From: Methanosarcina barkeri MS
GTDB lineage: Archaea; Halobacteriota; Methanosarcinia; Methanosarcinales; Methanosarcinaceae
Reading direction: 5' to 3'
Length of the DNA: 64,000 bases
Assembly (NCBI RefSeq): GCF_000970025.1
Contig: NZ_CP009528.1
Coordinates: 4,389,168-4,453,167, forward strand
The notes under the pieces were generated by a model. That model worked only from the letters and a program-made list of their open reading frames with translations, ran no database searches and had not been told where the DNA came from. The translations under genes and the position numbers were made by a program. This document shows, piece by piece, positions 1,905-39,324 of the stretch (positions within the stretch are counted from its first letter, which is position 1; each line of letters begins with the position of its first letter).

Positions 1905-2801
1905 TTAAGTTTTCAGTTGTTTTGGTGCACTCACATTTACCCATAGATGAAGGTCTCTATAAGGTACACTTTTCTCAGTGTCATTAAAGAGCAGGAACTG
2001 AAGCTTCAGATTCTTTCCCTCAACAGGAGGCATAATAGTAACGGGTTCTTCCCAGGTCTCATTATGGGCAAGATTGATATGCTTCACATTTTCCGGAAGG
2101 AACAGTGATTTATTATCAAGTGTTACTTCCATTGTGTAATTTACAGGCCTGTATTCATGGTTTACAACTCCAACTATTACGGTTCCACTTTGCCCGAGCG
2201 TGTAATTTGTAGTATAATTATCTGCTTTTCCTTCAGGTCCAAGAAGATAGAACTCTGTGAAATGTTCTCCTTCTTTTGGGCTCACAACCACATAAGCTAG
2301 GGTTACTATGGACAGGAGAATGGAAATTATCAGAAAACCCGTGAGAGCTCTATCTAGCCTTGACTCTGAGGTTTCCATGATCTCGGATTTGAGCGAAAGT
2401 GCTGCTGCTTTGAAAGAGATATTAAAAGCCTCACTTTCTGGGAGACTTGCTCGTCTAAGGTATGCAAGCCCACACATAATAAAGGTAAAAGCGGACAGAC
2501 TTATGAGAATTGGTAGAGTCCTGATTCCCCATGGAGTATAATTAAGACCAAGGCCTATTAATGGCACAACTGCAATACTCAGTCCGAATGAAAGAGCGAC
2601 CCGTTCGATCCCATCAAGATCAGATCTTGCAGGAAAAAGAGCTGCAATCAGAGCATACCCTGGCAGAAATAGCACAAGAGGCAATCCAAGTATATTCCGG
2701 AACATTGTTTCATTTATTCCAGGAGTGAGCACGAAGATATCTGTTAGGAGCACGAGCCCCATAATAATAAACAGATCTGAGGAAATTTTTTTTACAGTCA
2801 T
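1905..2801 (-). CDS. DUF1616 family membrane protein
   Basis: A protein of about 298 aa with four hydrophobic segments in its first 120 residues (SDLFIIMGLVLLTDIFVL, LPLVLFLPGYALIAALFP, ALSFGLSIAVVPLIGLGL, LPILISLSAFTFIMCGL). A fifth segment lies near residue 155-175, and the C-terminal half is soluble, beta-rich and presumably extracytoplasmic. It ends in LWVNV. The start at the fourth codon of the longer frame (2801) aligns with the MAGNxK start of the paralog at 16159; 2810 is possible. Three DUF1616 copies surround this glycan cluster. No catalytic motif is visible and the function is unknown. The soluble domain contains GPEGKADNYTTNYTLGQSG, nearly the same as in the paralog. Confidence 0.85.
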   Translation of the reverse strand: MTVKKISSDLFIIMGLVLLTDIFVLTPGINETMFRNILGLPLVLFLPGYALIAALFPARSDLDGIERVALSFGLSIAVVPLIGLGLNYTPWGIRTLPILISLSAFTFIMCGLAYLRRASLPESEAFNISFKAAALSLKSEIMETSESRLDRALTGFLIISILLSIVTLAYVVVSPKEGEHFTEFYLLGPEGKADNYTTNYTLGQSGTVIVGVVNHEYRPVNYTMEVTLDNKSLFLPENVKHINLAHNETWEEPVTIMPPVEGKNLKLQFLLFNDTEKSVPYRDLHLWVNVSAPKQLKT

Positions 2802-8540: not shown

Positions 8541-9968
8541 TTACATTAATAAATGTTCGTTTTTATCGCCTCTTCCTATTCCCTTATAGACAAATCCCTT
8601 ACCAATAAATTCATCCGGTTCAATTACATTTCTTCCATCTACAATAACTGGTTTTTCTTTGCCTGTAATTTTCTTTACCCAATCAGCCTTTATATCAGAG
8701 TATGCACTATGCCCTGCAAAAATAACTACAGCATCCGCGTCTTTGATAACATTTTCAAGATTATCTGAAATCTCAATTCCTGGATAGTTCACAACATAAG
8801 GGTCATGCACAGTAACTGTCGCACCTGCTTTCAGGCAGAGATCCCTGTAAGGTTCTGAAGGTGTGTTCCTCGCATCATCCGAGTCCCGGATAAAAGCCCA
8901 GCCGAGCATTGCAATCTTTGAGCCTTTCATCTCCTTTCCAATCCTTTTAAGGGCTACAACAGTCAAGTTGTACATATGAACAGGCATGAAATCGTTGACT
9001 TTTCTTGCCAGCACATAGATTGAGTCTGCGCCTTCCGGATAGTCAAGCTGCCCACTACCTATCTTAACTCCTCTTTCCAAGTGGTATGTATCTTTGGTAA
9101 GGCAGTGACCTCCAACGCCTGCTCCTGGCCAGAGTATAGCTCTTGTAATACCTTCTCCTTTTAGACTGTCTACTCCAGTCCTTACATCGTACACGTTTAT
9201 GCCCATGGCTTCACAGTAAAGGGCAAGCTGGTTAATTGCTGCAATCTGTAGGTCGCGGAAAGTATTTTCTGCAGTTTTCGTTACCTCAGCTGCAGTTGCA
9301 CTCATAGGAATTACTTTCCCCACAGTCAATACAGGAGAATAGAGCTCGATAGCCCGCCTGGTACTTGCTTCATTTATGCCGCCCACGATTCTATCATGTT
9401 CTCTAATATTCTTTAAAAGTCTGCCTACCATTACTCTTTCAGGAGCATGGGCAAGGGCAAAGTCTTCTCCGGCTTTCAGGCCTGATTCTTCCTCAAGAAT
9501 CTGTTTTGCCATACCTTCGGTTGTGCCAGGAGTAATTGTGGACTCAAGAACTACGAGCATTCCTGGTTTCAGGTATTTTCCTACATTTCTTATACCTTCA
9601 ATGAGTGCGGAAAAGTCAGGTTCCAAATCTTTAGGATTTGCAAAAGGAGTTTGGATTGCAAGCGTGACAGCATCAAGTTCTGATATCCTTGAGAACTCGG
9701 GAGTACACTCAAACTTGCCAGCTTTTACAACTTTATTAATAAGGTCTTCTAGACCGGGCTCTTCTCCTTTAAGAGGGCTTTCTCCACGGTTGAGCATACC
9801 AATCTTGTAACTTGAACTTTTTGAATTGCGCTGGAAGCCAAGGACTTTATTGAAACATGGAGCATCTGCGAAAAGAACCGCTGAAGGAATACCTACATAG
9901 CCCATTCCAATTACTCCAATTTTTTTGATCGGACCTCTTTCCTTGAAAAGTTTTTCTAATTTACTCAT
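8541..9968 (-). CDS. UDP-N-acetyl-hexosamine 6-dehydrogenase (WbpA/WecC family)
   Basis: A 475-aa nucleotide-sugar dehydrogenase that oxidises the C6 hydroxyl of a UDP-HexNAc to a uronic acid using NAD. The N-terminal Rossmann motif is IGVIGMGYVGIPSAVLF. The central helix holds TAAEVTKTAENTFRDLQIAAINQL. The catalytic Cys lies in GGHCLTKDTYHL, where the family usually has GGHC(I/L)xxDP. The C-terminal UDP-binding domain has LGWAFIRDSDDARNTPSEP. The start at 9968 is an ATG; a GTG three codons earlier is possible. With the 3-dehydrogenase, aminotransferase and acetyltransferase directly upstream, oxidation of UDP-GlcNAc (WbpA role) seems more likely than of UDP-ManNAc (WecC role). Confidence 0.9.
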   Translation of the reverse strand: MSKLEKLFKERGPIKKIGVIGMGYVGIPSAVLFADAPCFNKVLGFQRNSKSSSYKIGMLNRGESPLKGEEPGLEDLINKVVKAGKFECTPEFSRISELDAVTLAIQTPFANPKDLEPDFSALIEGIRNVGKYLKPGMLVVLESTITPGTTEGMAKQILEEESGLKAGEDFALAHAPERVMVGRLLKNIREHDRIVGGINEASTRRAIELYSPVLTVGKVIPMSATAAEVTKTAENTFRDLQIAAINQLALYCEAMGINVYDVRTGVDSLKGEGITRAILWPGAGVGGHCLTKDTYHLERGVKIGSGQLDYPEGADSIYVLARKVNDFMPVHMYNLTVVALKRIGKEMKGSKIAMLGWAFIRDSDDARNTPSEPYRDLCLKAGATVTVHDPYVVNYPGIEISDNLENVIKDADAVVIFAGHSAYSDIKADWVKKITGKEKPVIVDGRNVIEPDEFIGKGFVYKGIGRGDKNEHLLM

Positions 9969-10063
9969 GTTTATCACTTACTAAATTGTTTTTTCAAATC
10001 TTCCCAAACCATTTTCATTTTCAAAAGTTTTCGAGACTTTACTTTTTCAGAGTTTTTTCCGAC

Positions 10064-11002
10064 TTATTGTCCTACTTCAATTAATCTTTCTTCCTGATAG
10101 GATTTTATAGCTGCCATTGCTACTTCAAGGGCGTGTTTTCCGTCTTCTCCGCAGGGACTAGGTTTTGTACCCTTTTTAGCACACTCTATAAAATAGGTGA
10201 GTTCATTTTTCAGGGGTTCGCTATGTTCTACTTTGGCTTTTCTTATCCATTCGTTATCATGGAGCTGTACTGTCTGATTAATATAGTCCAAATAAGCAAC
10301 TCCCTTAACTCCTATCGCTGTTAACTGCCTTATCTTGTGCGGAGTCAGCCAGTTTGTTTCCACAACTCCTGCAAAATTATGGTCCATACGCAGGATAATT
10401 GAGGCGTGATCTTCAAATGAGTGAATATCGGCACCTGCAATTGCATAAACACTATTTATTTTCTTGCCGTAAAGATATGAGATCACATCTATATCATGGA
10501 CGCCAATATCCAGGATTACTCCCACATCTCTTATTCTTGGGTTATAGGGCCCCACTCGTTTGGTTGAAATTGAGACTATCTTTCCCAAAATGCCTGAATC
10601 TATAATCTCTTTGAGTTTTATAACTGCTGGATTAAAGCGCTCAATGTGCCCAACCATAAGGATTTTTCCCGCTTTATTTGCAGCTGCTATCATCAGGTCC
10701 GCGTTTTCAGTCGTATCTGCAATCGGCTTTTCTACAAGGACATGTACGCCTGCCTCAAGAGCATCAAGTACTACCTGCTTATGCAATTTGGTGGGCACAA
10801 CCACACTTACTGCATCAAGCCCTTCGGCTAACATTTTCTTATAATCTGTAAAGGCTTTTGTCTTGAATTGCGTAGCCATTGCTTCAACACGCTTCTGGTC
10901 TACATCCGAGATTCCGGCAAGCTCCACGTCATTCATTTCACTGTAAATCCTTACGTGGTTCTGCCCCATAGCACCTGTACCTATTACTCCTACTTTAATC
11001 AA
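10064..11002 (-). CDS. Gfo/Idh/MocA oxidoreductase, probable UDP-GlcNAc(A) 3-dehydrogenase (WbpB-like)
   Basis: About 312 aa. N-terminal Rossmann motif VGVIGTGAMGQNHVRIY, then the family motif HVLVEKPIADTTENAD with the conserved EKP lysine, and the C-terminal beta-sheet domain with GVHDIDVISYLYG. Such enzymes oxidise C3 of UDP-GlcNAc or its uronate to the 3-keto sugar. The 3' neighbour is the 6-dehydrogenase and the 5' neighbour the aminotransferase that would act on the keto product. The start is unusual: TTG at 11002 (Leu-Ile-Lys-Val) is preceded by AGGAAGTGAG, while the GTG at 11011 has the same purine run too close. I prefer TTG. Confidence 0.88.
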   Translation of the reverse strand: MIKVGVIGTGAMGQNHVRIYSEMNDVELAGISDVDQKRVEAMATQFKTKAFTDYKKMLAEGLDAVSVVVPTKLHKQVVLDALEAGVHVLVEKPIADTTENADLMIAAANKAGKILMVGHIERFNPAVIKLKEIIDSGILGKIVSISTKRVGPYNPRIRDVGVILDIGVHDIDVISYLYGKKINSVYAIAGADIHSFEDHASIILRMDHNFAGVVETNWLTPHKIRQLTAIGVKGVAYLDYINQTVQLHDNEWIRKAKVEHSEPLKNELTYFIECAKKGTKPSPCGEDGKHALEVAMAAIKSYQEERLIEVGQ

Positions 11003-28580: not shown

Positions 28581-29384
28581 TTAGAGATATTTTTCGATTT
28601 CTGAGAACTCTATCCTGGCAGTTGAATCCAGAGAAATCGGGGTTATTGAAACATGTCCTTTCTGCATAATGGCGTGCACATCAGTTCCTTCTTCTTCCTC
28701 CCGGATAAGGTCGCCTGCAATCCAGTAATAGGGTCTGCCCCTTGGGTCACGTCTTTCTTCGACACCCGTTTTAAAGATTTTTCTTGCAAGACGGGTTATC
28801 TCTATAGGGGTATCTTCTTCAGCGTGATAGGGGATATTTATGTTAAGAAGATCCACATTTTTCGGCATACCATACTTCAGGACGTTTCGAGCCACTTTGT
28901 TTACTACCTTAATTCCAGCCTCGAAACGCTCTCTATGGTAGTTCCTGGGATCATCGAATTTCTGGCCTTCATCAAGCACCTGCATGGAGGCAGCAATTGC
29001 AGGCACTCCGTAGCTTGCAGCTTCAAGGGCTCCTCCTATTGTCCCTGAGGTAGTGATAGTATCCGTGCTTATATTCTCTCCGATGTTAAAGCCAGAAAGC
29101 ACTAAGTCAGGCATCTCCTTAAGGATCGTGAAGATGCCCAGAATTACAGCGTCCGTAGGGGTTCCTCCCACAGAGTACGCAGGTGTACCTCCAGCATTTG
29201 TTTTCGTGATCCGTAGAGGCTCAAAGATAGAAATAGAACGTCCGACTCCGCTCTGCTGGACAGCAGGAGCCGAAATTGTAACTTCTCCGAGGTCCGAAAC
29301 GCTGTCAAAAGCAGCTTTCAAACCTGTGGAATATACGCCATCATCATTGGTAACAAGAATTTTTGGAGCCATGAGTTTTCCCAT
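28581..29384 (-). CDS. surE: 5'/3'-nucleotidase SurE
   Basis: A 267-aa metal-dependent nucleoside-monophosphate phosphatase. The N-terminal KILVTNDDGVYSTGL carries the tandem Asp metal ligands, VQQSGVGRSIS the conserved Ser, and VLSGFNIGENISTDTITTSGTIGGALEA the Asn and T-S-G-T motif. Length matches the family (250-270 aa). An alternative start at the fifth codon (29372, MAPKILV) fits the family better if the first four residues are not used. It is convergent with moaA and its companion. Confidence 0.93.
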   Translation of the reverse strand: MGKLMAPKILVTNDDGVYSTGLKAAFDSVSDLGEVTISAPAVQQSGVGRSISIFEPLRITKTNAGGTPAYSVGGTPTDAVILGIFTILKEMPDLVLSGFNIGENISTDTITTSGTIGGALEAASYGVPAIAASMQVLDEGQKFDDPRNYHRERFEAGIKVVNKVARNVLKYGMPKNVDLLNINIPYHAEEDTPIEITRLARKIFKTGVEERRDPRGRPYYWIAGDLIREEEEGTDVHAIMQKGHVSITPISLDSTARIEFSEIEKYL

Positions 29385-29727
29385 AAGTTGCCGGATAATT
29401 TAAAATTAATGGAAAAAATGCATGACTTGAAAGTACATGACTTGAAAATATACTATTTCAAGGATATCTCAAGGATATCTCAAGGATAATTTTAGGAAAA
29501 AATATTGTGGCAAAATAAAGAAAATACCACAAAAAAAGTTAATTTAGGGACTGCACTCTGGTATTTGCCAAGTCCCGTTTTTTGAATGAGAAGAATTTCT
29601 TTTAAAGTCTGTTCTGGAGAGGGAATTGTTAGTTTTCTAGTCTTCGTTACTCTTCAAACCAAATTATTATTGGTTCAGAGGCAGTGTTATTATTCCAGAG
29701 ACGATAGTTTAAAGGGTTCCTTATGAC

Positions 29728-29820
29728 CTGATAGCAATTCTTTGATCTGATAGCAATTCTTTGATCTGATAGCAATTCTTTGATCTGATAGCAATTCTTT
29801 GATCTGATAGCAATTTTTTA
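29728..29820. repeat. 19-bp tandem repeat, about five copies
   Basis: The unit ctgatagcaattctttgat repeats without change at 29728, 29747, 29766 and 29785. A fifth, diverging copy runs from 29804 to about 29820. It lies in non-coding DNA upstream of the candidate structured RNA. Confidence 0.95.
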
Positions 29821-29929
29821 ACCCGATAACATCTGAAACCGGTGAGGTATCAAATAAAGGCACTGAATAAGTCATCAGGTGTTTGATGTAGCTAGAAGAT
29901 TTAGATGATTAGTACCAATCCTCCTTCTT

Positions 29930-30150
29930 TCAGGATATGTAGGATGCAACTAAGAAACAAAGCATAACAGTCCACCTGAAAAGTGCTGCGCTTTTGCGAT
30001 CTGGGGCTTCAGGTCTGCGGTTTCTTTGTTGTGTTGCACGAATCCCGATCCGTATTAGTCAATGGCAATCTTCCTCCTAATTTTAGCTAATCACTGCCAC
30101 CTCCCTACCGGGTTCTCCCCAATTTTGACCCGGGAACAGTTTTTCTTATC
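29930..30150 (+). ncRNA. Candidate structured RNA
   Basis: Nested complementary segments occur in order. TGCAAC (29945-29950) pairs with GTTGCA (30033-30038), AACAAAG (29956-29962) with CTTTGTT, and ACCTGAA (29974-29980) with TTCAGGT, around an inner AAGTGC/GCGCTT hairpin. Next comes a TGGCA/TGCCA stem near 30063-30098, then CCGGGT/ACCCGG near 30108-30133 followed by cagtttttc, a terminator-like end. GC content is higher than in the surroundings. No protein frame explains it. It matches no RNA family I can name. Strand is inferred from the T-run. Confidence 0.4.
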
Positions 30151-31048
30151 CGAAAGGAATTAGCCTACCTGTGCAGCTGAGTTAAGGTATCAAACTCCGA
30201 ACACAGTTTTTATGGTGTACACATAGAGGTGGTGAACACCTATGGCAAACATCATCACTCGTACGACCAGAAACTCCAGATTATGGAGCCAGTGAGTCGT
30301 CTCTATAAGCTTTTCCGAATGTAAAATTCTTTTTTCTTTTCCGGATCTTATGATTTCTTTTAAACTCTTTGATAGCATTTTGTTAAAACCCCACTCATAA
30401 TGTATTCTATCTGATATTGTCTCAAAGCATTCCCTGTTTAGAAAGTGCTCTGTGTATGTACTTTAAAAATCCAATCTCAAACAGGCACTTTATGTTCGAA
30501 AGTATCCTGCATAGTATACACTATCCGACGCAATCTCAAACAGGCATCTTCATATCGAAAATGCATTATTTACCCCACCGACTCTAGCTTTAGAAGTTTG
30601 TGATATTAAAAGTTGTTGACCCTGTATGAAATAATAGTATATGACCACATAAATAATATTCAGAAGCCCTGATTAACATTTTAGTTAATGGACATGAGAT
30701 AAAACCTGAGCATTGATGACGAGAAGAATTAAATCATAAATTTAAAGCGGGTTATATAAGCCAAAAATCGAGAAAATAAGGCAATAAAAAGTGTTCCGAA
30801 GTTAATTTCCTGTGCCCTGCAAAACAAGATAGAGCGAAAAAACCCTATCAAACGAAAGAAGATTGGGCCACCGCTTTCAGAATCAAAAATCAAAAATCGG
30901 GTAGCAATAATAGTCGTCTCAAGCCTGTTTTGTCCCGCGCCTAGCGCGGCTGGAACACGAAAACCCATAAGTGAGAAAAGCGAAAAAAGAATTCAAGGGC
31001 ATCGTTTAGAGCTGAAGCGAGTTTCAGTCAGTTTTTACAACTTTATTT

Positions 31049-31171
31049 TTATTTTTCTGCCGACCGGCCTCGAAAATCTCGAGCTATTACTGAACAAGGA
31101 TCTTCCGTGATTACCTTTAAAGTTTTGAGTGCTTTTTCAGTGGTTTCGATTCTGAGCTTTAGTGTTTCCAC
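31049..31171 (-). pseudogene. Truncated HEPN toxin (HepT-like), N-terminal 40 residues
   Basis: A GTG at 31171 overlaps the last 13 bases of the MNT gene and opens a 40-residue frame (VETLKLRIETTEKALKTLKV, then ITEDPCSVIARDF...). This resembles the first helix of HEPN proteins partnered with MNT nucleotidyltransferases. HEPN toxins are usually about 110-140 aa and carry an R-x4-6-H motif near the C-terminus. Here a stop follows at 31051 and no continuation is visible in other frames, so the toxic part is missing. An MNT without its toxin would be a solitary antitoxin. Confidence 0.55.
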
Positions 31172-31470
31172 ACAATCCCTTTTCTTAGCGCTTTTTCTAT
31201 AAAAACTTTCGAAACCCTGGAAAAGTCCACAATATCAACTGTATAGGGAATATTAAGGTTCTCAATTCTTTCTTTTAAGAAAATCAAATTTCTCCAGTCA
31301 AAATATTTCCCTGGAAGGATTCCAATGTCTATGTCCGATACTCGACTAAAATCCCCCCTTGCCCTAGAACCGAAGAGTATGACAGTAACATTTTCTTCTT
31401 TTAAAGTTTCAAAAACCAGGGATTTCAGATCCTGAATGCTTTTTTGATAGATAGGAGAAAGGCTGCTCAT
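31159..31470 (-). CDS. MNT-type minimal nucleotidyltransferase (antitoxin of a HEPN-MNT module)
   Basis: A 103-aa protein. VTVILFGSRARGDFSRVSDIDIGIL holds the GSxAR(G) and D-x-D motifs of the DNA polymerase beta-like superfamily. Such proteins AMPylate a Tyr near the HEPN active site and so neutralise the partner RNase. Length is normal for MntA. The overlapping partner gene is truncated (31049-31171), so the module is probably inactive as a toxin-antitoxin pair. About 100 bases separate it from the HicA-like gene upstream. Confidence 0.88.
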   Translation of the reverse strand: MSSLSPIYQKSIQDLKSLVFETLKEENVTVILFGSRARGDFSRVSDIDIGILPGKYFDWRNLIFLKERIENLNIPYTVDIVDFSRVSKVFIEKALRKGIVWKH

Positions 31471-31573
31471 CTACTATTCATTTAAGGGTTTTCAATACTT
31501 GAATGTAATGTTAACAACTGTGGAAAAATTAGAAAAAAAATACTGAAAATGACAAGAGAGGACTAAAAAAGAA

Positions 31574-31852
31574 TTAGATATTTCCGTTTTTGGAATAGAT
31601 CTCATTTAATTCCTCTTTAGACAAAGGACATCGAATCAGGTCATCAAACTGTTGATGTGATAACTTAAGTTGATTTCTCATTTTACTTAACAGCTTGTCA
31701 CCGTATTCATCTTTCCCGTGGCTTATAAAAGTATGAATTCCCGTTTTGGTTCCATCGACATAATATGTGTACAATTTGTGATGAGTATTTTGAAGCTGAA
31801 ATCCCTTTTTAGATAAAGAAGACTCAATGTCTTTTACTTTATATTTAGACAT
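31574..31852 (-). CDS. HicA-like small protein
   Basis: About 92 aa. The pattern KGFQLQNTHHKLYTYYVDGT, then HTFISHGKDEYGDKLLSKMRNQLKLSHQQFDDLI resembles HicA mRNA interferases: a helix, three strands with a His after a turn (HHKLY), then the LLxxMxxQLxLSxxxF helix. The tail CPLSKEELNEIYSKN is extra. The ATG at 31852 overlaps the end of the upstream 347-aa gene by eight bases (ATGTCTAA), so translation is coupled. Classical HicA is followed by a small HicB; no HicB is present here and the partner is large and upstream. Confidence 0.65.
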   Translation of the reverse strand: MSKYKVKDIESSLSKKGFQLQNTHHKLYTYYVDGTKTGIHTFISHGKDEYGDKLLSKMRNQLKLSHQQFDDLIRCPLSKEELNEIYSKNGNI

Positions 31853-32888
31853 TTTGAGCACCTACAATTGAAATCAACATCTCCCTCAGATCTTTACCGC
31901 TGGGTGCCAACTCCTCCTCATCAACAAGTACATATTCTTGCCACAGCACGTTAAGCTGTCCTTTGAGTTCCTCGATCAAAAGCTTCATTTTTGGTTGAAC
32001 AGCAAGCAGTCCCAAGTCATCGTTTGAAGCTATATAATAATCATCCTCAAATTCAATGTCAATTGGAACTTCTTCCTTCAATTTCACTTCAATCTCATCT
32101 CTTTTAATTGAGGTTAGATAGTATTGTGGATTTCTTTCAATAGATGCTTCACTGTCAATACTTAAAACGAACTTACCTTTAAAAGGCTTCATTACACCAC
32201 GTATGGTAACAATGTTTCCAATAATATCTTTGATATCTTCTTCGATGTCCGCAGTGAAATTACAGTCAATTGGCCCTTCTGGAGTGTCGATTTGAATTCT
32301 TCTGTTTTTGTCGACCCTTAGTTCATACACCCTTCCAAAAACTTTCTTTTCATATTCCTCAACAGGCTTGTGTAGTAGGGATTGTATTACTTCTTTTTGT
32401 TCTGGATTTAGTTTTTCTTCAACTTTCCCTGAAAAACCGAAAGTTAGACTTCTTTTAGACTGCGGGTCAGGCCACATTAAATAGAACTCTTTCAAAACTT
32501 TGTTTAACCTATGAGGGTCTTTAATTATTTCGCCCAATTCTTCTTTTGAAACATCTTTGTGGGAAAGAGCTTCAATTAACTCATTTGTTGCACAAATTGC
32601 CCTCTCACCTAATGTTCCCAACTCTGTTATACCAACTTGAGAGTCGCCTATTTGCATTTCGGCGTGAACACTACCCATCTCTATATTCGTTACAAAAAGG
32701 GTACATGAATCTTTGATAACCTGCGGAAAATCCCCTGTCGGACGGCTTGTATTTCCATAAAAATAGTCGCCCAGATGGAAAATAATGTTTTGGATGTGTT
32801 GTATAGCGCCAACCATTTCGATTGCAGGTATTTTTTCTTCTCCGTTGATTGAAAATGATAATTTCCGTTCCTCGAAAACCTTGACCAT
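31845..32888 (-). CDS. Unrecognised 347-aa protein coupled to a HicA-like gene
   Basis: A soluble acidic protein without signal peptide or membrane segment. The start has GAGGTAGG before the ATG. The N-terminal half (to about residue 160) is mixed alpha/beta with a helix-rich part (KDVSKEELGEIIKDPHRLNK). The C-terminal half holds beta-rich sequence: YELRVDKNRRIQIDTPEGPI, GNIVTIRGVMKPFKGKFVLS, RNPQYYLTSI, EVPIDIEFEDDYYIASND, which could be OB- or SH3-like strands. It ends in a long acidic helix (MKLLIEELKGQLNVLWQEYV). I do not recognise it. The eight-base overlap with the HicA-like gene suggests an antitoxin or effector partner. Confidence 0.7.
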   Translation of the reverse strand: MVKVFEERKLSFSINGEEKIPAIEMVGAIQHIQNIIFHLGDYFYGNTSRPTGDFPQVIKDSCTLFVTNIEMGSVHAEMQIGDSQVGITELGTLGERAICATNELIEALSHKDVSKEELGEIIKDPHRLNKVLKEFYLMWPDPQSKRSLTFGFSGKVEEKLNPEQKEVIQSLLHKPVEEYEKKVFGRVYELRVDKNRRIQIDTPEGPIDCNFTADIEEDIKDIIGNIVTIRGVMKPFKGKFVLSIDSEASIERNPQYYLTSIKRDEIEVKLKEEVPIDIEFEDDYYIASNDDLGLLAVQPKMKLLIEELKGQLNVLWQEYVLVDEEELAPSGKDLREMLISIVGAQNV

Positions 32889-33311
32889 GCAACCTACCTC
32901 ATAATCCTGAATTTTAAAGGCATATATTAGTTTTTTGATATAAGGGCTTTATGTAAAAATCAAGTGTGGAAGTGGCGACTTATTAATAAATCCTTTATGA
33001 AAAAAAGGTAGTCTTTCAAGAGTTTCGAGAAAATTTCTACGCTGTAATTGAGGAGGAAGGTTCAGAGAAGACTTCGTAAAAGAAGGTTAGAGATATGTCT
33101 TTTATAAGCCATCACCCAAATAATATTTTACTGAAAAATATTTAGACTATCTCATCAAGCTCAATCACTATAGGAGTCAGAGTAGTGTACCAAATTTTCT
33201 GTAAATTCAAAGTCAAATTTTTTGCGTACTGTCCATAATTCAGTTCTTTAATGTTGGATTCTCCAACTGTCAACTTGTTAAGATTTATAGTTTTATAGAA
33301 AAGTTAGCACA
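32889..33311. other. AT-rich intergenic region
   Basis: No gene or organised repeat seen between the 347-aa gene and the next minus-strand gene. It probably holds the promoter of the 347-aa/HicA-like operon (TATA-like taatatatgcc on the minus strand near 32918-32928). Confidence 0.4.
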
Positions 33312-33776
33312 TTACCTTTTATTTTCCTTTGTTGATGCACTCTCATAAAAAAGATTATTTACATATTTGTCAATTTGTGAGTTCTTGGAATTATAATATA
33401 CTCCATCAATATTAACAGTTTCATTATCTACAATAATAATTCTTGATATCCGAGAATCTTCATTAAAAAAATCTATTGAGTACAGATATCCATTGAGATC
33501 TTCCTGTTCAACTTTTTTTGTAAACGAGTAATCTGAGATACAATTTATCAGATTATTTATTAGGCTTTTATTTTCTACTTCAATTGAGTCTCCATTTAGT
33601 CCGTTTTTGATAGATATTCTAGTGATATTCTCATAGCTAACATTTGTTACTTTGTGACCTGTATCTTTTTCATGTAAACTTGGAAAAAATAACGTGAAAA
33701 ATAATAAACCTACTATAGTAAAACACGAAATTAACACAATTTTCGTCATCTGTTTAGCCAAATTTTGCACCCTCAA
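33312..33776 (-). CDS. Membrane-anchored hypothetical protein
   Basis: A 154-aa protein with one N-terminal hydrophobic segment (IVLISCFTIVGLLFFTLFF), then a polar domain of about 120 residues rich in Asn, Ser and Ile: ITRISIKNGLNGDSIEVENK, LYSIDFFNEDSRISRIIIVD. It looks like an exported or membrane-tethered beta-rich domain. An alternative start lies nine codons in. It has the same direction as the split papain-like protease gene upstream, about 100 bases away. I do not recognise the family. Confidence 0.65.
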   Translation of the reverse strand: MRVQNLAKQMTKIVLISCFTIVGLLFFTLFFPSLHEKDTGHKVTNVSYENITRISIKNGLNGDSIEVENKSLINNLINCISDYSFTKKVEQEDLNGYLYSIDFFNEDSRISRIIIVDNETVNIDGVYYNSKNSQIDKYVNNLFYESASTKENKR

Positions 33777-33872
33777 TTGTCTATATCTATTTAGCCAGAT
33801 CTTATATCCTTAAATGTCAATTAAAACAAAAAATAAAAAAAGATGTTTTGGTGCACACTTTAGAATTTTTTA

Positions 33873-34717
33873 TTACTCAATGTATACCATATCATCAATG
33901 TAATTATCCACAAGCACATTGACGTTATTATCGCCCCATCCATTATTGACTATAATATAATATTGTGGATTAACATATGGAACTGTGAGTACATAGTATC
34001 CGTGTGCTATTATCCAGTGCTCCCCAAATGTTGGATGATTATCCGTGTCAACAATTATAGGTTTATTTGAATTGATGAGAGACTGAATCTTACTGTAACT
34101 AAAAGAAGAACTGGACTTTGCGCTGTAATCATCATCGAGATTCCGATCTACCAAATAATCGTCCAATCCATTTGTAACGGTTAAAGTACTCGTTCCTTGA
34201 TTTGGTATATACCCATTAGTTATGAGATCTAATAGATCATCTTGGTTTTCGTAGTTCGAATCAACAAAATCGTCATCATGGTAATCATCAAAATATATGA
34301 GAGTTATACCAGCTGCAATTGGACCACAATAAACGGAACTATCTTCCCAAGTCCTTAATGAATGACTCAAACTTCCGCCTGTAGACGATAGTGTCTGTAT
34401 CTTCTGTGCTGATGTAGCTGATTCTTGCAGTTCCAAGATTTTTTTAGATTTATTCACTTTTTCCTTTTTGTAAATGTACTTGGTTTTGATTTCCCTGTTT
34501 TTTAGTTCTTCTGCTTCAACATAAGCAAGAGGACCATTGTAGTAGTAACTTTTATTCCCGACGATAAACGGACTTTTGTTTGTCATTGAAAATTCAGGCA
34601 CAGACAAATCATTCACATTAATAATGATATATCCTTCATTGCTTATCGAAAAAGCAACAGCTTCAATGTCATTATCTAAATTTTTTAAAGGTGTTGAGGA
34701 AGTCAAGTTTATAGAAT
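33873..34717 (-). pseudogene. C-terminal part of secreted papain-like protease gene, cut off by an IS
   Basis: This is the 3' part of a gene whose 5' part is at 35855-36039. Joined across one copy of the 7-bp target duplication the two give 1023 bases, exactly 341 codons with stop, and the frame fits (GYS-INLTSSTP). Catalytic elements lie here: SSVYCGPIAAGITLIYF (nucleophile Cys), GEHWIIAHGYYVLTVPY (His) and IIVNNGWGDNN (Asn region), as in C10/C39-type cysteine peptidases. Before them is a propeptide-like AVAFSISNEGYIIINV. Without its signal peptide this fragment would stay inside the cell if made at all. Confidence 0.88.
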
Positions 34718-35854
34718 AGGAGTTACGCAGTTGGCTCCTAGCATATTGTTTTTTCCAAACTTTCAAATATTTGAATTAATTTAACGTGTATTGGGGATTC
34801 CTTAAGTATTCTGTCACTGCCACTCTTCTAATTTTCATAGCACTTTCAAACCAGGATATTCCACTTTTGATTCTTTGTAATTCCAGTCTAAGAAAAGCTC
34901 TTAATGAGAACATTATATGTGCTCTTTGTGATTCTTCCTTTCTTGCCTGACATTTTTCGACACCACAGAACTGTTTTATTCCCCTATGATATTCCTCAAT
35001 TTTCCATGACTTCTTTGCCAAATCTTCACGTTTTGCTTCATCCATCTCTTGCACATCTGTAACCCAGTGTTGCGTGTCTCCATTTTTTGAAACTATCCTA
35101 AACACCTTTACAAATCCATATGCTTTGAGGTGAACCACACGTCCTTTTGGAGGAATATCTACTGTTTCAAGTGGCACATTTCCCTTGTTGTCAGGATTTA
35201 CCAAACGATTATTTTTCAATCTTGTAAGGAAATGCCACTCTTTCTGTCTAATGGCTTTAAGGTTTTTCACACTTGCATACCATGTATCAAATAAAACGAA
35301 TTTGGGATTAAAACCACGTTCTTCGGCCTTGTCAAGCATATCACGGAAATGGTCATTCTTTGTTTTGTCGTCTACATCGATGTTATAAATTCGAAAATCG
35401 ATAGGTATAACGGTTGTACCGTCAGTCCAAACTAAGGTAACCAGGCCTATTCCCTTTACAGTACGATGATGTTTTCCACTCCACATACGACGAACAAAAG
35501 CAATTTCTTCTGCGTATGGTTTATCTAATGTTGAATCATCAACAATTAGGTATCCTCCCTTAAGCTTGACATAACTTTTTACTTCCTCCCATAGTGCTTC
35601 CGTGTCTGGAGGTTGCCTTTGAAGGCAACGAGTAAAAGCATCATGAGAAGGAGCATTAGCTATGTCTGGATAACATCTAGCAGCTTCAGTACAGCTAAAA
35701 ACGTTAGAAGCCGCAATGAGAAAATTAATGTAGTCAATGTCGGTACACTTAGGTGGATTTATGTCCATAACTCCGTACGTTTTTAGAGAAACACTAAGCC
35801 ATAAGTATATTTATAAAGATATCAAGTTTTCGGCATTTTAACTGCGTAAGTCCT
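34718..35854. mobile_element. Complete insertion sequence, IS4/IS701-like, 1137 bp
   Basis: Terminal inverted repeats AGGAGTTACGCAGTT (left) and AGGACTTACGCAGTT (right, read inward) bound one transposase gene. The 7-bp target duplication atagaat is present at 34711-34717 and 35855-35861. The element sits inside a protease gene and its exact removal with one duplication copy restores that frame. The MITE at 3116-3234 has the same kind of ends. Confidence 0.95.
34776..35768 (-). CDS. IS4/IS701-like DDE transposase
   Basis: A 330-aa transposase that appears intact. First catalytic Asp in GGYLIVDDSTLDKPYAEEI (near residue 77), second in FVLFDTWYASVKNLKAI, and the Glu in WKIEEYHRGIKQFCGVEKCQ, the YxxGxK-type motif of IS4 relatives. 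HHRTVKGIGLVTLVWTDGTT is a family signature. It fills nearly all of the element, leaving about 57 bases at its 3' end and 86 at its 5' end. It may also mobilise the MITE at 3.1 kb. Confidence 0.92.
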   Translation of the reverse strand: MDINPPKCTDIDYINFLIAASNVFSCTEAARCYPDIANAPSHDAFTRCLQRQPPDTEALWEEVKSYVKLKGGYLIVDDSTLDKPYAEEIAFVRRMWSGKHHRTVKGIGLVTLVWTDGTTVIPIDFRIYNIDVDDKTKNDHFRDMLDKAEERGFNPKFVLFDTWYASVKNLKAIRQKEWHFLTRLKNNRLVNPDNKGNVPLETVDIPPKGRVVHLKAYGFVKVFRIVSKNGDTQHWVTDVQEMDEAKREDLAKKSWKIEEYHRGIKQFCGVEKCQARKEESQRAHIMFSLRAFLRLELQRIKSGISWFESAMKIRRVAVTEYLRNPQYTLN

Positions 35855-36039
35855 ATAGAATAACCCATTCTTTCCAAGAATAGTTCACCATATTCTTTTT
35901 CTATACTGAAATTATCACATTCATCATTTATTCCCATATTTTCATTTGTTTGAGCACTTGCAGCAGGTACAAATACTATGCTCAGCAGCAACATTGCCGC
36001 GAAGACTGTTCTGTCTAATATTTTTATACTTATTTTCAA
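35855..36039 (-). pseudogene. N-terminal part of secreted papain-like protease gene (5' fragment)
   Basis: From a TTG start at 36039, with AGAGGTGA ideally placed upstream, the frame reads MKISIKILDR, then the hydrophobic core TVFAAMLLLSIVFVPAASAQ (signal peptide, cleavage probably after ASA), then 31 residues of propeptide ending ERMGYS at the IS. The reading frame continues in the 33873-34717 fragment once the IS is removed. In its present state translation would run about 20 codons into the element and stop. Confidence 0.85.
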
Positions 36040-37500
36040 TTATTTCACCTCTTTATCCCAGAGCAAGATTACACAAACTTTAAACACTATCAAAGCTTAA
36101 TCATAATCTTGTATCCATGCACGTATTGTGGAGTTCAGATGACCGAAACTAACATTTGAACTTTAGATATTATTTTAGGATTAAAGTTTATAAGTTTTCT
36201 GTCCAAATAGTCAAACTAACTGTTTTTGATGTTCTTTTCAAGTACTCAATTATTCCTTGATGTTCAATTGTTGAAGACTATGATCAAAAAATTTATAGAA
36301 TCATAGTTGCGGCTAGTGTTTTTTGAATAGGGAAATTTAGAATGAATGGAATAAGATACATCTACTGTTTTTGAATATAATTTTCAGGGAAGAGAACCAA
36401 CTTTCAATATCGTGACAGTGTAGGATCAGGAGAAAGAATCAACCTATTTGCAATAAATAAATAGTGAATTCAATAGACACTCAATAGACTCATTAGTATA
36501 GCAAACTCTTAAAGGAAAGAAATCGAGCGCTTCGCGCTCAATTAAGAGGTAGATTCTAAAATATATAAAAAAGTATAAAATCGGTTAGTAGAAACTACAC
36601 ACGAGTTCACTTTAGGATTTTTCAATACTGAAATTTTTATAATAGATTATCGGAAATGGACTCTGGTCCAAAATCCAGTGATTTTTTGCATTTTTTGATT
36701 GAAAATCTGAATTAGCAAGAAAAATCTGGTTTTCACTAAAATCAATATTCGATATCTAAAGACGTCAATCCCTAAGTTGTATCACAAGAATTGTGACCAA
36801 TTACAAAATATAGTGATTTTGAATTTTACATTCATCACTAGATTTTGATACTGAGTCTCGGAAATGTAATAATTGATGAAAGAAGAATATTTTTTAAAAT
36901 ATTAAAGGAAGATAATAAATTAGTATGAGTAGTCATTCGGAACTACAGCAAATCGAAACTATTGAAAACTCAACAAGATTTTTATCTATTGGAGTATAAC
37001 TGTTGAGAATAAAAGAAGTAAATTATTATTAAAGTTATTTATTTGAGTATCACTCATAGCATGATTATAGATAGCTGAACTAATATTCTCCCCTTATGCA
37101 TGAGCCATTTCACCAATTGAATATTCAGATTTTTTATACCTTTTCAACGATCGATGTTTTGCGAAGAGCACATATACATCCACTGTTACCCCAACATCTT
37201 CAAATCTAACTGCGGGCTATTTCTCATAGACATTAAATCGTTTGTATAAAATTAAAATACTAAATATATTAGTGCGGCCATAAAAACAGATCGTTTTTGA
37301 AATTTATCTATAAGCTGACTATAATTCCTTAAACTTGAGAAATATTATAAGTTTAGTTCATTAATAACTCAAAATCCACTCACTTTCTAGAGCAGTGCAA
37401 ATTTAATATAATGATACCTTTATCCATCTAGTATTTCCTCCTATAGATCAAAATTACAATTATCTGATATCCCCCAATCAATTTCACGAGGATTTATAAT
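36040..37500. other. 1.46-kb AT-rich intergenic region
   Basis: No gene seen on either strand. One compact hairpin, gagcg-cttcg-cgctc, lies at about 36529-36543. The promoter of the glycyl-tRNA synthetase gene must lie near the right end; aaatatattag at 37263-37273 is a possible TATA box. The rest shows no repeat. Confidence 0.45.
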
Positions 37501-39324
37501 ATGGACAAGTACGAGAAGGTATTCGAGCTGGCTAAACGCCGGGGGTTCTTGTGGAACTCCTTTGAGCTGTATGGCGGAAGCCGCGGATTTTATGATTACG
37601 GGCCTCTTGGGAGCACACTGAAGAGGCGAATCGAGCAGACCTGGAGAGAATTTTACGTTATCCAGGAAGGGTTTATGGAGATCGAATGCCCGACAATCGG
37701 GATCGAGGAAGTCTTTATCGCGTCCGGGCACGTTGGAGGTTTTTCGGACCCACTGTGCGAGTGCATGAACTGTAAAGAAGCATTCCGGGCCGATCATCTT
37801 GTACAAAACGTAATGGAAGCCGCAGGGACCCTGAGTGCAGAAGAACTCACTAAGGTTATAAAGGAAAACGATATCCGATGCCCGGAGTGCGGTGGAAAAT
37901 TCGGCGACGCCTATGAATTCAACCTGATGTTCAAAACTACAATTGGGCCCGGCACTGGAAGGCAGGGATATCTCAGACCGGAGACAGCACAGGGTATGTT
38001 TGTCGATTTCCAGAGGCTGTCCCGTTTTTACAGGGACAAGCTGCCTTTTGGAGCCGTGCAGATCGGGAAATCTTACAGAAATGAAATCGCACCCAGGCAA
38101 GGTGTAATCCGTCTCAGGGAATTCACACAGGCCGAGTGCGAGATTTTCGTTGACCCGCGCAACAAGAAGCACCCCAACTTCGAGCGCTTTGCAGACAGAG
38201 AACTTGTACTATATTCCCAGAAAGCACAGGAGAAAGGCGAACCCTTCAGGATGACTGTCCGGGAAGCTGTGAAGACCGGAGTTATTGCACACGAAGTCCT
38301 GGGCTACAACATTGCACTAACCAACGAATTCCTGACAAAGGTTGGGATTGATCCTTCAAAACTCAGGTTCAGACAGCACCTGAAAGACGAAATGGCGCAT
38401 TATGCAATCGACTGCTGGGATGCCGAGATTGAGACCGACCGGTTCGGCTGGGTCGAGATCGTGGGAATTGCTGACAGGACAGATTACGACCTTAAAGCTC
38501 ATGCAAAGGTCAGCAAGACCGAGCTTTATGTGTATGTCGAATACGACGAGCCAAAAATGGTTACTCGCTTTGTTGTAAAGCCGAACATGGGCAAGCTCGG
38601 GCCTCTCTTTAAGGGCAAAGCAAAAGCCGTCGCAGATGCCTTAAAACAGCTTTCCGAAGAAGAACTATCAAAGGATGAGATCAAAGTTACCGTGGACGGG
38701 GAAGAGTTTACAGTCGGTTCGGATGCAGTGGACTTTGCGGAAGAAACCGTTAAAGTCAGTGGAGAAAACGTCATCCCTCACGTAATCGAGCCCTCTTATG
38801 GGATCGACAGGATCTTCTACGGCGTTATGGAGCATGCCTATGACGAAGAGAACGTGGCTCAGAAGGTTGCCGAATCCGGGCTTAAAGGCACAGAAGAAAC
38901 TGAAAAGGAATCTGAAGCCGGAAAGAGCGAAGGTGAAACTGAGGGAGAAGAGGAAGCCCGTCTCGTCATGCACTTTTCAAGCGCAGTTGCCCCGGTACAG
39001 GTTGCAGTCCTCCCACTCCTGACCCGTAAAGAGCTTGCAGACCCTGCAAAGGATATCATTGTAAAACTCAGGGAAAAGGCCCTGCTTGTCAATTATGATG
39101 ATTCCGGAACCATCGGGCGCCGCTACAGGAGAAACGACGAAATCGGAACTCCTTACTGTGTTACTGTAGATTACGATACCCTCAAAGACGGGACTGTAAC
39201 TATAAGGGACAGAGATTCCATGCGTCAGATCCGAGCTCCGGTAAAAGGTATCGAAAACGTGCTCTACGAACTTATTTACAGAGGCAGAACTTTCGAATCC
39301 GCAGGCAAGCCCTTTAACTTCTAA
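37501..39324 (+). CDS. glyS: Glycyl-tRNA synthetase (archaeal/eukaryotic alpha2 type)
   Basis: A 607-aa class II synthetase that charges tRNA-Gly. It starts MDKYEKVFELAKRRGFLWNS and holds YGGSRGFYDYGPLGS, a Cys-rich insertion with CECMNCKEAF and CPECGGKF (possible zinc site, residues 85-145), RPETAQGMFVDF (class II motif 2 region, with the glycine-recognition GTGRQGYLRPETAQ) and SYGIDRIFYGVMEHAY (motif 3). The C-terminal anticodon-binding domain starts at VAVLPLLTRKEL. Between motif 3 and the anticodon domain is a Glu/Lys-rich insertion of about 40 residues. Length is typical for archaea. Confidence 0.96.
   Translation: MDKYEKVFELAKRRGFLWNSFELYGGSRGFYDYGPLGSTLKRRIEQTWREFYVIQEGFMEIECPTIGIEEVFIASGHVGGFSDPLCECMNCKEAFRADHLVQNVMEAAGTLSAEELTKVIKENDIRCPECGGKFGDAYEFNLMFKTTIGPGTGRQGYLRPETAQGMFVDFQRLSRFYRDKLPFGAVQIGKSYRNEIAPRQGVIRLREFTQAECEIFVDPRNKKHPNFERFADRELVLYSQKAQEKGEPFRMTVREAVKTGVIAHEVLGYNIALTNEFLTKVGIDPSKLRFRQHLKDEMAHYAIDCWDAEIETDRFGWVEIVGIADRTDYDLKAHAKVSKTELYVYVEYDEPKMVTRFVVKPNMGKLGPLFKGKAKAVADALKQLSEEELSKDEIKVTVDGEEFTVGSDAVDFAEETVKVSGENVIPHVIEPSYGIDRIFYGVMEHAYDEENVAQKVAESGLKGTEETEKESEAGKSEGETEGEEEARLVMHFSSAVAPVQVAVLPLLTRKELADPAKDIIVKLREKALLVNYDDSGTIGRRYRRNDEIGTPYCVTVDYDTLKDGTVTIRDRDSMRQIRAPVKGIENVLYELIYRGRTFESAGKPFNF

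What the first reader, a model, noticed from the sequence alone, without database searches (positions are those of the whole stretch)
31574..32888. HicA-like protein coupled to a large unknown partner: possible new toxin-antitoxin or defence pair
The HicA-like ATG lies inside the end of a 347-aa gene with no recognisable domain (eight-base overlap). Classical HicA is paired with a small HicB. Here the partner is large, upstream and beta-rich in its C-terminal half. The neighbours are an MNT/HEPN remnant and IS elements, as in conflict islands. This is the best candidate in the window for an undescribed two-gene system.
Basis: inference. Interest (0 to 1): 0.75.

Follow-up and report, generated by a model that had tools for sequence, protein, structure and literature searches.

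The report
Class 8 hicBA toxin-antitoxin gene pair
Two overlapping genes in a methane-making archaeon (Methanosarcina) encode a probable RNA-cutting toxin of the HicA family and a large antitoxin whose tail is a diverged HicB domain; this arrangement was catalogued in 2024 as 'Class 8 hicBA', so the pair is a real but not new kind of system.

Summary
A 347-aa gene (31845-32888, minus) overlaps a 92-aa HicA-like gene (31574-31852, minus) by 8 bp. All 22 testable relatives of the large protein in the same archaeal order have the small gene directly behind them. The small protein has the HicA fold: its best PDB match is the T. thermophilus HicA 1WHZ (Z 9.4), followed by solved HicAB complexes; the likely catalytic His is kept in 54 of 55 relatives. 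The C-terminal ~95 aa of the large protein match canonical HicB by profile comparison (72.7% against at most 0.7% for decoys). Both genes are under strong purifying selection.

The 'undescribed system' claim fails. Gerdes 2024 (PMC10865869) describes Class 8 hicBA, with the same gene order, HicB size, three-domain HicB and ~95-aa HicA with two extra helices.

What this work adds: the same HicA subfamily also pairs with HicB tails carrying other N-terminal modules (ribbon-helix-helix or unidentified). Intact pairs also sit, unannotated, on a cyanobacterial plasmid and in the archaeal virus MFTV1. In Methanosarcina the pair lies in a variable slot between surE and glyS. Toxicity, neutralisation and any antiviral role are untested.

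The parts
31845..32888 (-). hicB-type antitoxin gene, 347 aa, three regions (Gerdes Class 8 type)
32358..32888 (-). N-terminal region of the antitoxin (residues 1-177), no known family; under purifying selection
   Evidence: no Pfam/NCBIfam/PADLOC family; dN/dS 0.08-0.14
32133..32357 (-). middle region (residues 178-252), beta-rich, possibly OB-like
   Evidence: weak profile match to AspRS OB domain, 7.1% against <=0.3% decoys; LysRS not matched; Gerdes reports a lysyl-tRNA-synthetase-like fold for Class 8
31848..32132 (-). C-terminal HicB-like domain (residues 253-347), the part shared by nearly all partners of this HicA subfamily
   Evidence: hhalign to canonical HicB 72.7%, E 3.2e-5, decoys <=0.7%; the only part shared with short partners
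31574..31852 (-). [quoted passage not shown]
31778..31780 (-). codon of His25, probable catalytic histidine of HicA
   Evidence: His in 54 of 55 homologues; equivalence to B. pseudomallei His24 is inferred from the motif
31845..31852 (-). 8-bp overlap ATGTCTAA of the two genes (translational coupling inferred)
   Evidence: the same -8 overlap in several homologues and in MFTV1
31859..31863 (-). AGGTG Shine-Dalgarno-like motif for hicA inside the end of hicB
   Evidence: read from sequence; function inferred
32920..32929 (-). TATA-box-like TAATATATGC, conserved upstream of hicB in four Methanosarcina
   Evidence: alignment; promoter role inferred

Best explanation
The pair is a type II toxin-antitoxin module of the HicBA kind, Class 8 in Gerdes' scheme. 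The 92-aa HicA-type protein is most likely an RNase of dsRBD-like fold that stops growth by cutting mRNA through His25. The 347-aa protein made just before it binds and masks HicA with its C-terminal HicB domain. Overlapping genes keep synthesis coupled, antitoxin first. The N-terminal and OB-like regions sit where other HicB partners of this HicA subfamily carry a DNA-binding module (RHH; Phd in a related pair), so they probably do a regulatory job: binding nucleic acid (own promoter or RNA) and oligomerising the complex. Shown here: gene order, obligate co-occurrence, HicA fold, HicB-like C-terminus, purifying selection, exchange of N-terminal modules. Inferred: RNase activity, toxicity, neutralisation, regulation. 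The locus probably serves defence or self-maintenance, since the pair also occurs on a plasmid and in a virus.
For: HicA: AlphaFold model pLDDT 82, helix-strand-strand-strand-helix plus two helices. Best solved structures: 1whz Z 9.4, 6g26 6.3, 5yrz 5.7, 4p78 5.3, the last three being HicAB complexes. Profile match to canonical HicA 96.5% against at most 0.4% for decoys. His25 in 54 of 55. HicB: the C-domain matches canonical HicB at 72.7%, while the N and middle regions and decoys give at most 1.8%; the PHD_like antitoxin family PF12910 matches the C-domain of a homologous long partner in G149. Coupling: 22 of 22 testable and 58 of 60 HicA-like loci with a partner. Modularity: partners are N-OB-C (34) or C with other N-termini (24), some with RHH; at least two, most parsimoniously five, changes on the HicA tree. 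Selection: dN/dS 0.06-0.09 for hicB and 0.05-0.09 for hicA among Methanosarcina. Same architecture as Gerdes Class 8. Mobile copies: plasmid NZ_AP014827.1 and MFTV1.
Against: No activity data exist for this or any Class 8 pair that I could find. The single-sequence Pfam HicA score is below the curated cut-off. The AlphaFold model of the large protein is poor (mean pLDDT 52, C-terminus mostly below 50), so the HicB assignment rests on sequence profiles. The OB assignment is weak. No palindromic operator is visible upstream, so autoregulation is conjecture. PADLOC finds no known defence system. Gerdes' Class 8 sequences could not be compared directly because the supplement was out of reach.
Confidence: 0.88

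Rival explanations
1. The large protein is more than an antitoxin: its N-terminal and OB-like regions sense an infection or stress signal (RNA, nucleotide or viral protein) and release HicA, making the pair a dedicated abortive-infection system rather than a plain toxin-antitoxin module.
For: The N and middle regions are large and under purifying selection. The pair sits in a variable slot that in other species holds mntA-hepT, a pentapeptide/ion-channel gene or other ORFs. Gerdes argues HicA loci are often in defence islands. A virus carries the pair.
Against: No defence profile match and no infection data. Exchange with DNA-binding RHH modules fits operon regulation equally well. The immediate neighbourhood in the window is not a dense defence island.
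Confidence: 0.25
2. The N-terminal and OB-like regions are only the DNA-binding, dimerising half of the antitoxin, used to repress the hicBA promoter, as RHH, HTH or Phd domains do in other HicB proteins.
For: In the same HicA subfamily this position holds VapB/DUF7557-type RHH domains, and a Phd-like domain in the PF12910 partner of a related HicA. The modules exchange on the tree.
Against: About 250 residues is large for a repressor module. There is no recognisable DNA-binding domain and no palindrome upstream.
Confidence: 0.4
3. An undescribed two-gene system unrelated to HicBA, with a chance HicA-like small protein.
For: Single-sequence searches find no family for the large protein.
Against: HicB-like C-terminus, HicA fold, and agreement with published Class 8 in every respect that could be settled.
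Confidence: 0.04
4. A decaying remnant of a toxin-antitoxin locus with no present function.
For: The locus is absent from most Methanosarcina, and some relatives have a truncated hicA beside an intact hicB (G037, L010).
Against: Both genes are intact in the window and evolve with dN/dS of 0.03-0.14.
Confidence: 0.05

Closest known systems
Class 8 hicBA modules (Gerdes 2024, mBio, PMC10865869)
   Same: hicB before hicA; genes closely linked or overlapping; HicB 331-356 aa with three domains ending in a HicB fold; HicA about 95 aa with two extra C-terminal helices; no recognisable DNA-binding domain.
   Different: No difference found. Members here are from Methanosarcina and its relatives; direct comparison with Gerdes' listed sequences was not possible.
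Canonical HicAB (B. pseudomallei 6g26, S. pneumoniae 5yrz, HicA3B3 4p78)
   Same: HicA fold and likely catalytic His; HicB-like domain in the partner.
   Different: Order reversed; partner several times larger, with the HicB domain at the C-terminus and no HTH or RHH; HicA longer and below the Pfam cut-off.
Class 5 hicBA with N-terminal Phd/YefM module (Pfam PF12910 PHD_like)
   Same: hicB first, HicB-like domain C-terminal, HicA behind (L144).
   Different: N-terminal module is Phd-like instead of the N and OB-like regions; the HicA there is shorter.
MNT-HEPN (mntA-hepT) type VII toxin-antitoxin
   Same: An MNT-type gene lies next door, and an intact mntA-hepT lies in the same slot in G015.
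   Different: Separate gene; no HepT found in the window.

Membership tests
Class 8 hicBA (Gerdes 2024) | hicB upstream of hicA, closely linked or overlapping | tested here: met
   8-bp overlap, hicB first; in most relatives gaps of -11 to +17 nt
Class 8 hicBA (Gerdes 2024) | HicB of 331-356 aa | tested here: met
   347 aa
Class 8 hicBA (Gerdes 2024) | HicA about 95 aa, alpha-beta-beta-beta-alpha plus two small C-terminal helices | tested here: met
   92 aa; AlphaFold model H6-15 E18-22 E26-32 E35-43 H52-61 H66-74 H79-89
Class 8 hicBA (Gerdes 2024) | C-terminal domain of the large protein is HicB-like | tested here: met
   By sequence profile: 72.7% to canonical HicB, decoys <=0.7%; structure model too poor to confirm the fold
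Class 8 hicBA (Gerdes 2024) | Middle domain resembling lysyl-tRNA synthetase (OB-like) | tested here: inconclusive
   7.1% to AspRS OB, 0.4% to LysRS OB; Pfam OB model hits 1 of 22 members at E 0.18
Class 8 hicBA (Gerdes 2024) | No recognisable DNA-binding domain | tested here: met
   No Pfam or NCBIfam DNA-binding hit for the window protein
Class 8 hicBA (Gerdes 2024) | Direct sequence homology to Gerdes' listed Class 8 proteins | not testable with these tools
HicA toxin family | dsRBD-like HicA fold and sequence homology to HicA | tested here: met
   1whz Z 9.4 and HicAB complexes next; profile 96.5%. The single-sequence Pfam score of 18.5 is below the curated detection cut-off of 27
HicA toxin family | Conserved catalytic histidine | tested here: met
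   His25 in 54 of 55; equivalence to His24 of B. pseudomallei inferred from the motif
HicA toxin family | RNase activity and growth arrest | not testable with these tools
   needs expression assays
Type II toxin-antitoxin | Antitoxin protein binds and neutralises the toxin | not testable with these tools
   only co-occurrence and modularity support it
MNT-HEPN system | Adjacent MNT and HEPN genes | tested here: not met
   MNT intact at 31159-31470; no relative of the G015 HepT in the window

The most novel reading that the evidence does not exclude
The N-terminal plus OB-like part of the large HicB is an infection or nucleic-acid sensor that has replaced the usual DNA-binding module, so that Class 8 hicBA is a sensor-gated RNase defence exchanged between archaea, cyanobacterial plasmids and archaeal viruses.
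Probability: 0.15. Interest if true: 0.65.

Novelty: new member of a known kind. Interest (0 to 1): 0.35.

Why it matters
Class 8 hicBA has been catalogued, but I found no experiment on it. The Methanosarcina pair lies in a genus with laboratory strains and a known virus, and the module exchange seen here gives a direct way to ask what the ~250-residue extension does. Finding intact pairs in a virus and on a plasmid supports the view that these modules move with mobile elements and may take part in conflicts between them.

Tried and rejected
An undescribed system: rejected after profile, fold and literature checks. MNT/HEPN conflict island: the MNT is solitary and no HepT is found. Structure of the large protein: the AlphaFold model is poor, and its PDB comparison gave only Z 5 or less to unrelated folds, so it was not used. 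PDB sequence profiles for the large protein and for short partners gave nothing meaningful. Sequence profile of HicA against PDB: only chance hits, MecI on top. Viral contigs of IMG/VR searched with the window proteins or their alignment: no relative; an MFTV1-like contig is found only with the MFTV1 protein. Plasmid search with the window HicB: none; with a distant homologue: one cyanobacterial plasmid. OB fold by profile: suggestive only. Palindromic operator upstream: none in the window's gene. Remnants of hicBA in Methanosarcina that lack it: none in the surE-glyS interval of four genomes.

Full report
OBSERVATION. The two genes are as described. On the minus strand a 347-aa ORF (31845-32888) overlaps by 8 bp (ATGTCTAA) a 92-aa ORF (31574-31852 from ATG; a GTG nine bases further upstream is also possible). 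The small protein scores 18.5 bits, E 0.0023, with Pfam HicA_toxin, under the curated cut-off of 27; the large one has no match in Pfam, and nothing significant in NCBIfam, PADLOC or PHROGs. The genome is a Methanosarcina: relatives of the same genus carry the pair at 93-97% identity, one of them the M. spelaei contig NZ_LMVP01000551.

COUPLING. The large protein has homologues in 21 of 100 related genomes. In all 22 homologous loci where downstream sequence exists, the HicA-like gene follows directly; the two exceptions, L017 and L023, end at contig ends. In the other direction, an alignment of the HicA-like family finds it in 40 of 295 genomes of the phylum and 49 of 186 of the order, counts that include some weak, partial matches. 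Of 60 non-redundant HicA-like loci 58 have an upstream partner; the other two are a contig edge and the second half of a frame-broken gene. Of the 58 partners, 55 match the C-terminal profile of the window's large protein.

THE SMALL PROTEIN IS A HicA. Its AlphaFold model (pLDDT 82) is helix-three strands-helix plus two extra C-terminal helices. The best solved structure is 1whz, the T. thermophilus HicA, at Z 9.4, rmsd 1.6 over 67 residues; the next three are HicAB complexes, 6g26, 5yrz and 4p78, at Z 6.3, 5.7 and 5.3. Profile comparison with canonical archaeal HicA gives 96.5%, decoys at most 0.4%. K16-G17-F18, T41 and S44 are invariant in 55 homologues and H25 is kept in 54. H25 is most likely the counterpart of His24 of B. 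pseudomallei HicA, whose mutation abolishes toxicity (PMC3969222); this equivalence is inferred from the motif, with two residues fewer between the GF/GW motif and the His.

THE LARGE PROTEIN ENDS IN A HicB-LIKE DOMAIN. The last ~95 residues match canonical HicB by profile comparison at 72.7%, E 3.2e-5 for one comparison. Eight column-shuffled decoys and the reversed alignment give at most 0.7%, and the N and middle regions of the same protein at most 1.8%. In the homologous long partner of G149 the same region matches Pfam PHD_like (PF12910) at E 4e-4. The one full PF12910 member found (L144) has a Phd-like N-terminus and a HicA-like gene right behind it, as in Gerdes' Class 5. The AlphaFold model of the large protein is too poor to add evidence.

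MODULES. Within this one HicA subfamily the C-terminal domain is constant while the N-terminal part varies. In 34 loci it is the N plus middle regions seen here (partners of about 270-390 aa, most near 350); in 24 it is something else (72-224 aa, a few of them fragments). Several short partners begin with a ribbon-helix-helix of the VapB/DUF7557 type; three members match DUF7557 or VAPB_antitox at E 9.6e-8 to 0.0045. On a tree of the HicA proteins the partner type changes at least twice on well-supported branches and five times by parsimony, though it is clustered overall (94 columns, so many forks are unresolved). The constant C-terminal domain is therefore the likely toxin-binding part and the N-terminal part an exchangeable regulatory or sensing module. 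The middle region may be OB-like, but my test was inconclusive: 7.1% to AspRS OB against at most 0.3% for its decoys, no match to LysRS.

SELECTION AND CONTEXT. Between Methanosarcina orthologues dN/dS is 0.06-0.09 for hicB as a whole, 0.03-0.14 for its parts, and 0.05-0.09 for hicA. The pair lies between surE and glyS (gene names assigned from the translations, by my own knowledge). In G015 it fills that interval beside a solitary MNT gene and an intact mntA-hepT pair; in G026, G027 and G004 the interval holds the MNT gene and a pentapeptide-repeat/ion-channel-like ORF (Pfam-checked for G026), and in G013 other ORFs, with no hicBA remnant. It is thus a variable slot in the genus. In the window a Peptidase_C39-like gene and a DDE transposase lie between hicBA and glyS. 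No relative of the G015 HepT is present in the window.

OTHER REPLICONS. A cyanobacterial plasmid (Geminocystis, NZ_AP014827.1) carries a partner of about 356-358 aa, running across the record start, and a 95-aa HicA, and all three partner regions match the profiles. Methanocaldococcus fervens tailed virus 1 carries QNO11507.1 (328 aa) and QNO11506.1 (104 aa), annotated only as hypothetical proteins, overlapping by 8 bp as in the window; again all regions match.

COMPARISON WITH WHAT IS KNOWN. Gerdes 2024 (PMC10865869) lists fourteen genetic contexts of HicA. Class 8 is hicBA with HicB of 331-356 aa in three domains (1-171 unknown, 175-253 resembling lysyl-tRNA synthetase, 255-342 HicB fold) and HicA of about 95 aa with two extra C-terminal helices, without a recognisable DNA-binding domain. 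The window pair agrees in every respect that could be settled here; the middle domain stayed inconclusive. It is a new member of a known class for which I found no experiment. N-terminal RHH on HicB is not among the fourteen contexts as listed, where RHH is C-terminal and the N-terminal module is Phd/YefM.

MECHANISM. Most likely HicA is an mRNA-cutting toxin held inactive by the C-terminal HicB domain of the co-translated partner, and the N-terminal and OB-like regions regulate the operon or gate release. The first half rests on fold, profile, conservation and co-occurrence; nothing biochemical is shown. For the second half, operon regulation (0.4) is favoured over signal sensing (0.25) because DNA-binding RHH modules take the same place, but no palindromic operator is visible.

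Noticed in passing
L177:1507-2800 (MT711370.1, Methanocaldococcus fervens tailed virus 1): An archaeal tailed virus encodes a complete Class 8-type hicBA pair (QNO11507.1 and QNO11506.1, 'hypothetical protein') with an 8-bp gene overlap as in the window.
   Followed up: partly
L038 (NZ_AP014827.1, positions 1-763 and 9814-10375): A 10-kb cyanobacterial plasmid carries the same three-region HicB and HicA pair across the record's start point; neither is annotated as toxin-antitoxin.
   Followed up: partly
L051:1079-1498(+), L054:1011-1484(+), L055:1767-2231(-), L057:1770-2189(-); L061:981-1487(+), L065:1023-1490(+), L067:1775-2242(-): In other genomes of the phylum the same HicA subfamily pairs with a short HicB carrying an N-terminal ribbon-helix-helix (VapB/DUF7557-like; less certain in L061, L065, L067), an arrangement not among Gerdes' fourteen contexts as listed.
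   Followed up: partly
window 28581-39324 (surE to glyS): The surE-glyS interval is a variable slot in Methanosarcina holding hicBA, mntA-hepT, pentapeptide-repeat/ion-channel genes or other ORFs in different species.
   Followed up: partly
window 31159-31470 (-): A solitary MNT-type nucleotidyltransferase with intact GS...DxD motif, conserved at 74-86% identity in eight other Methanosarcina genomes; no HepT follows it in the window.
   Followed up: partly
window 33873-35768 (-): A Peptidase_C39-like gene and a DDE transposase inserted between hicBA and glyS; absent from that place in G015, where the hicBA homology ends about 100 bp from the glyS homology.
   Followed up: no
L010 (G037), about 2513-2734(+): hicA is truncated while the large hicB stays intact, the decay order expected of a toxin-antitoxin pair.
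   Followed up: no
L144:1269-2010(-) (G160): A PF12910 (PHD_like) antitoxin with a HicA-like gene directly behind it, linking that Pfam family to Class 5 hicBA.
   Followed up: no
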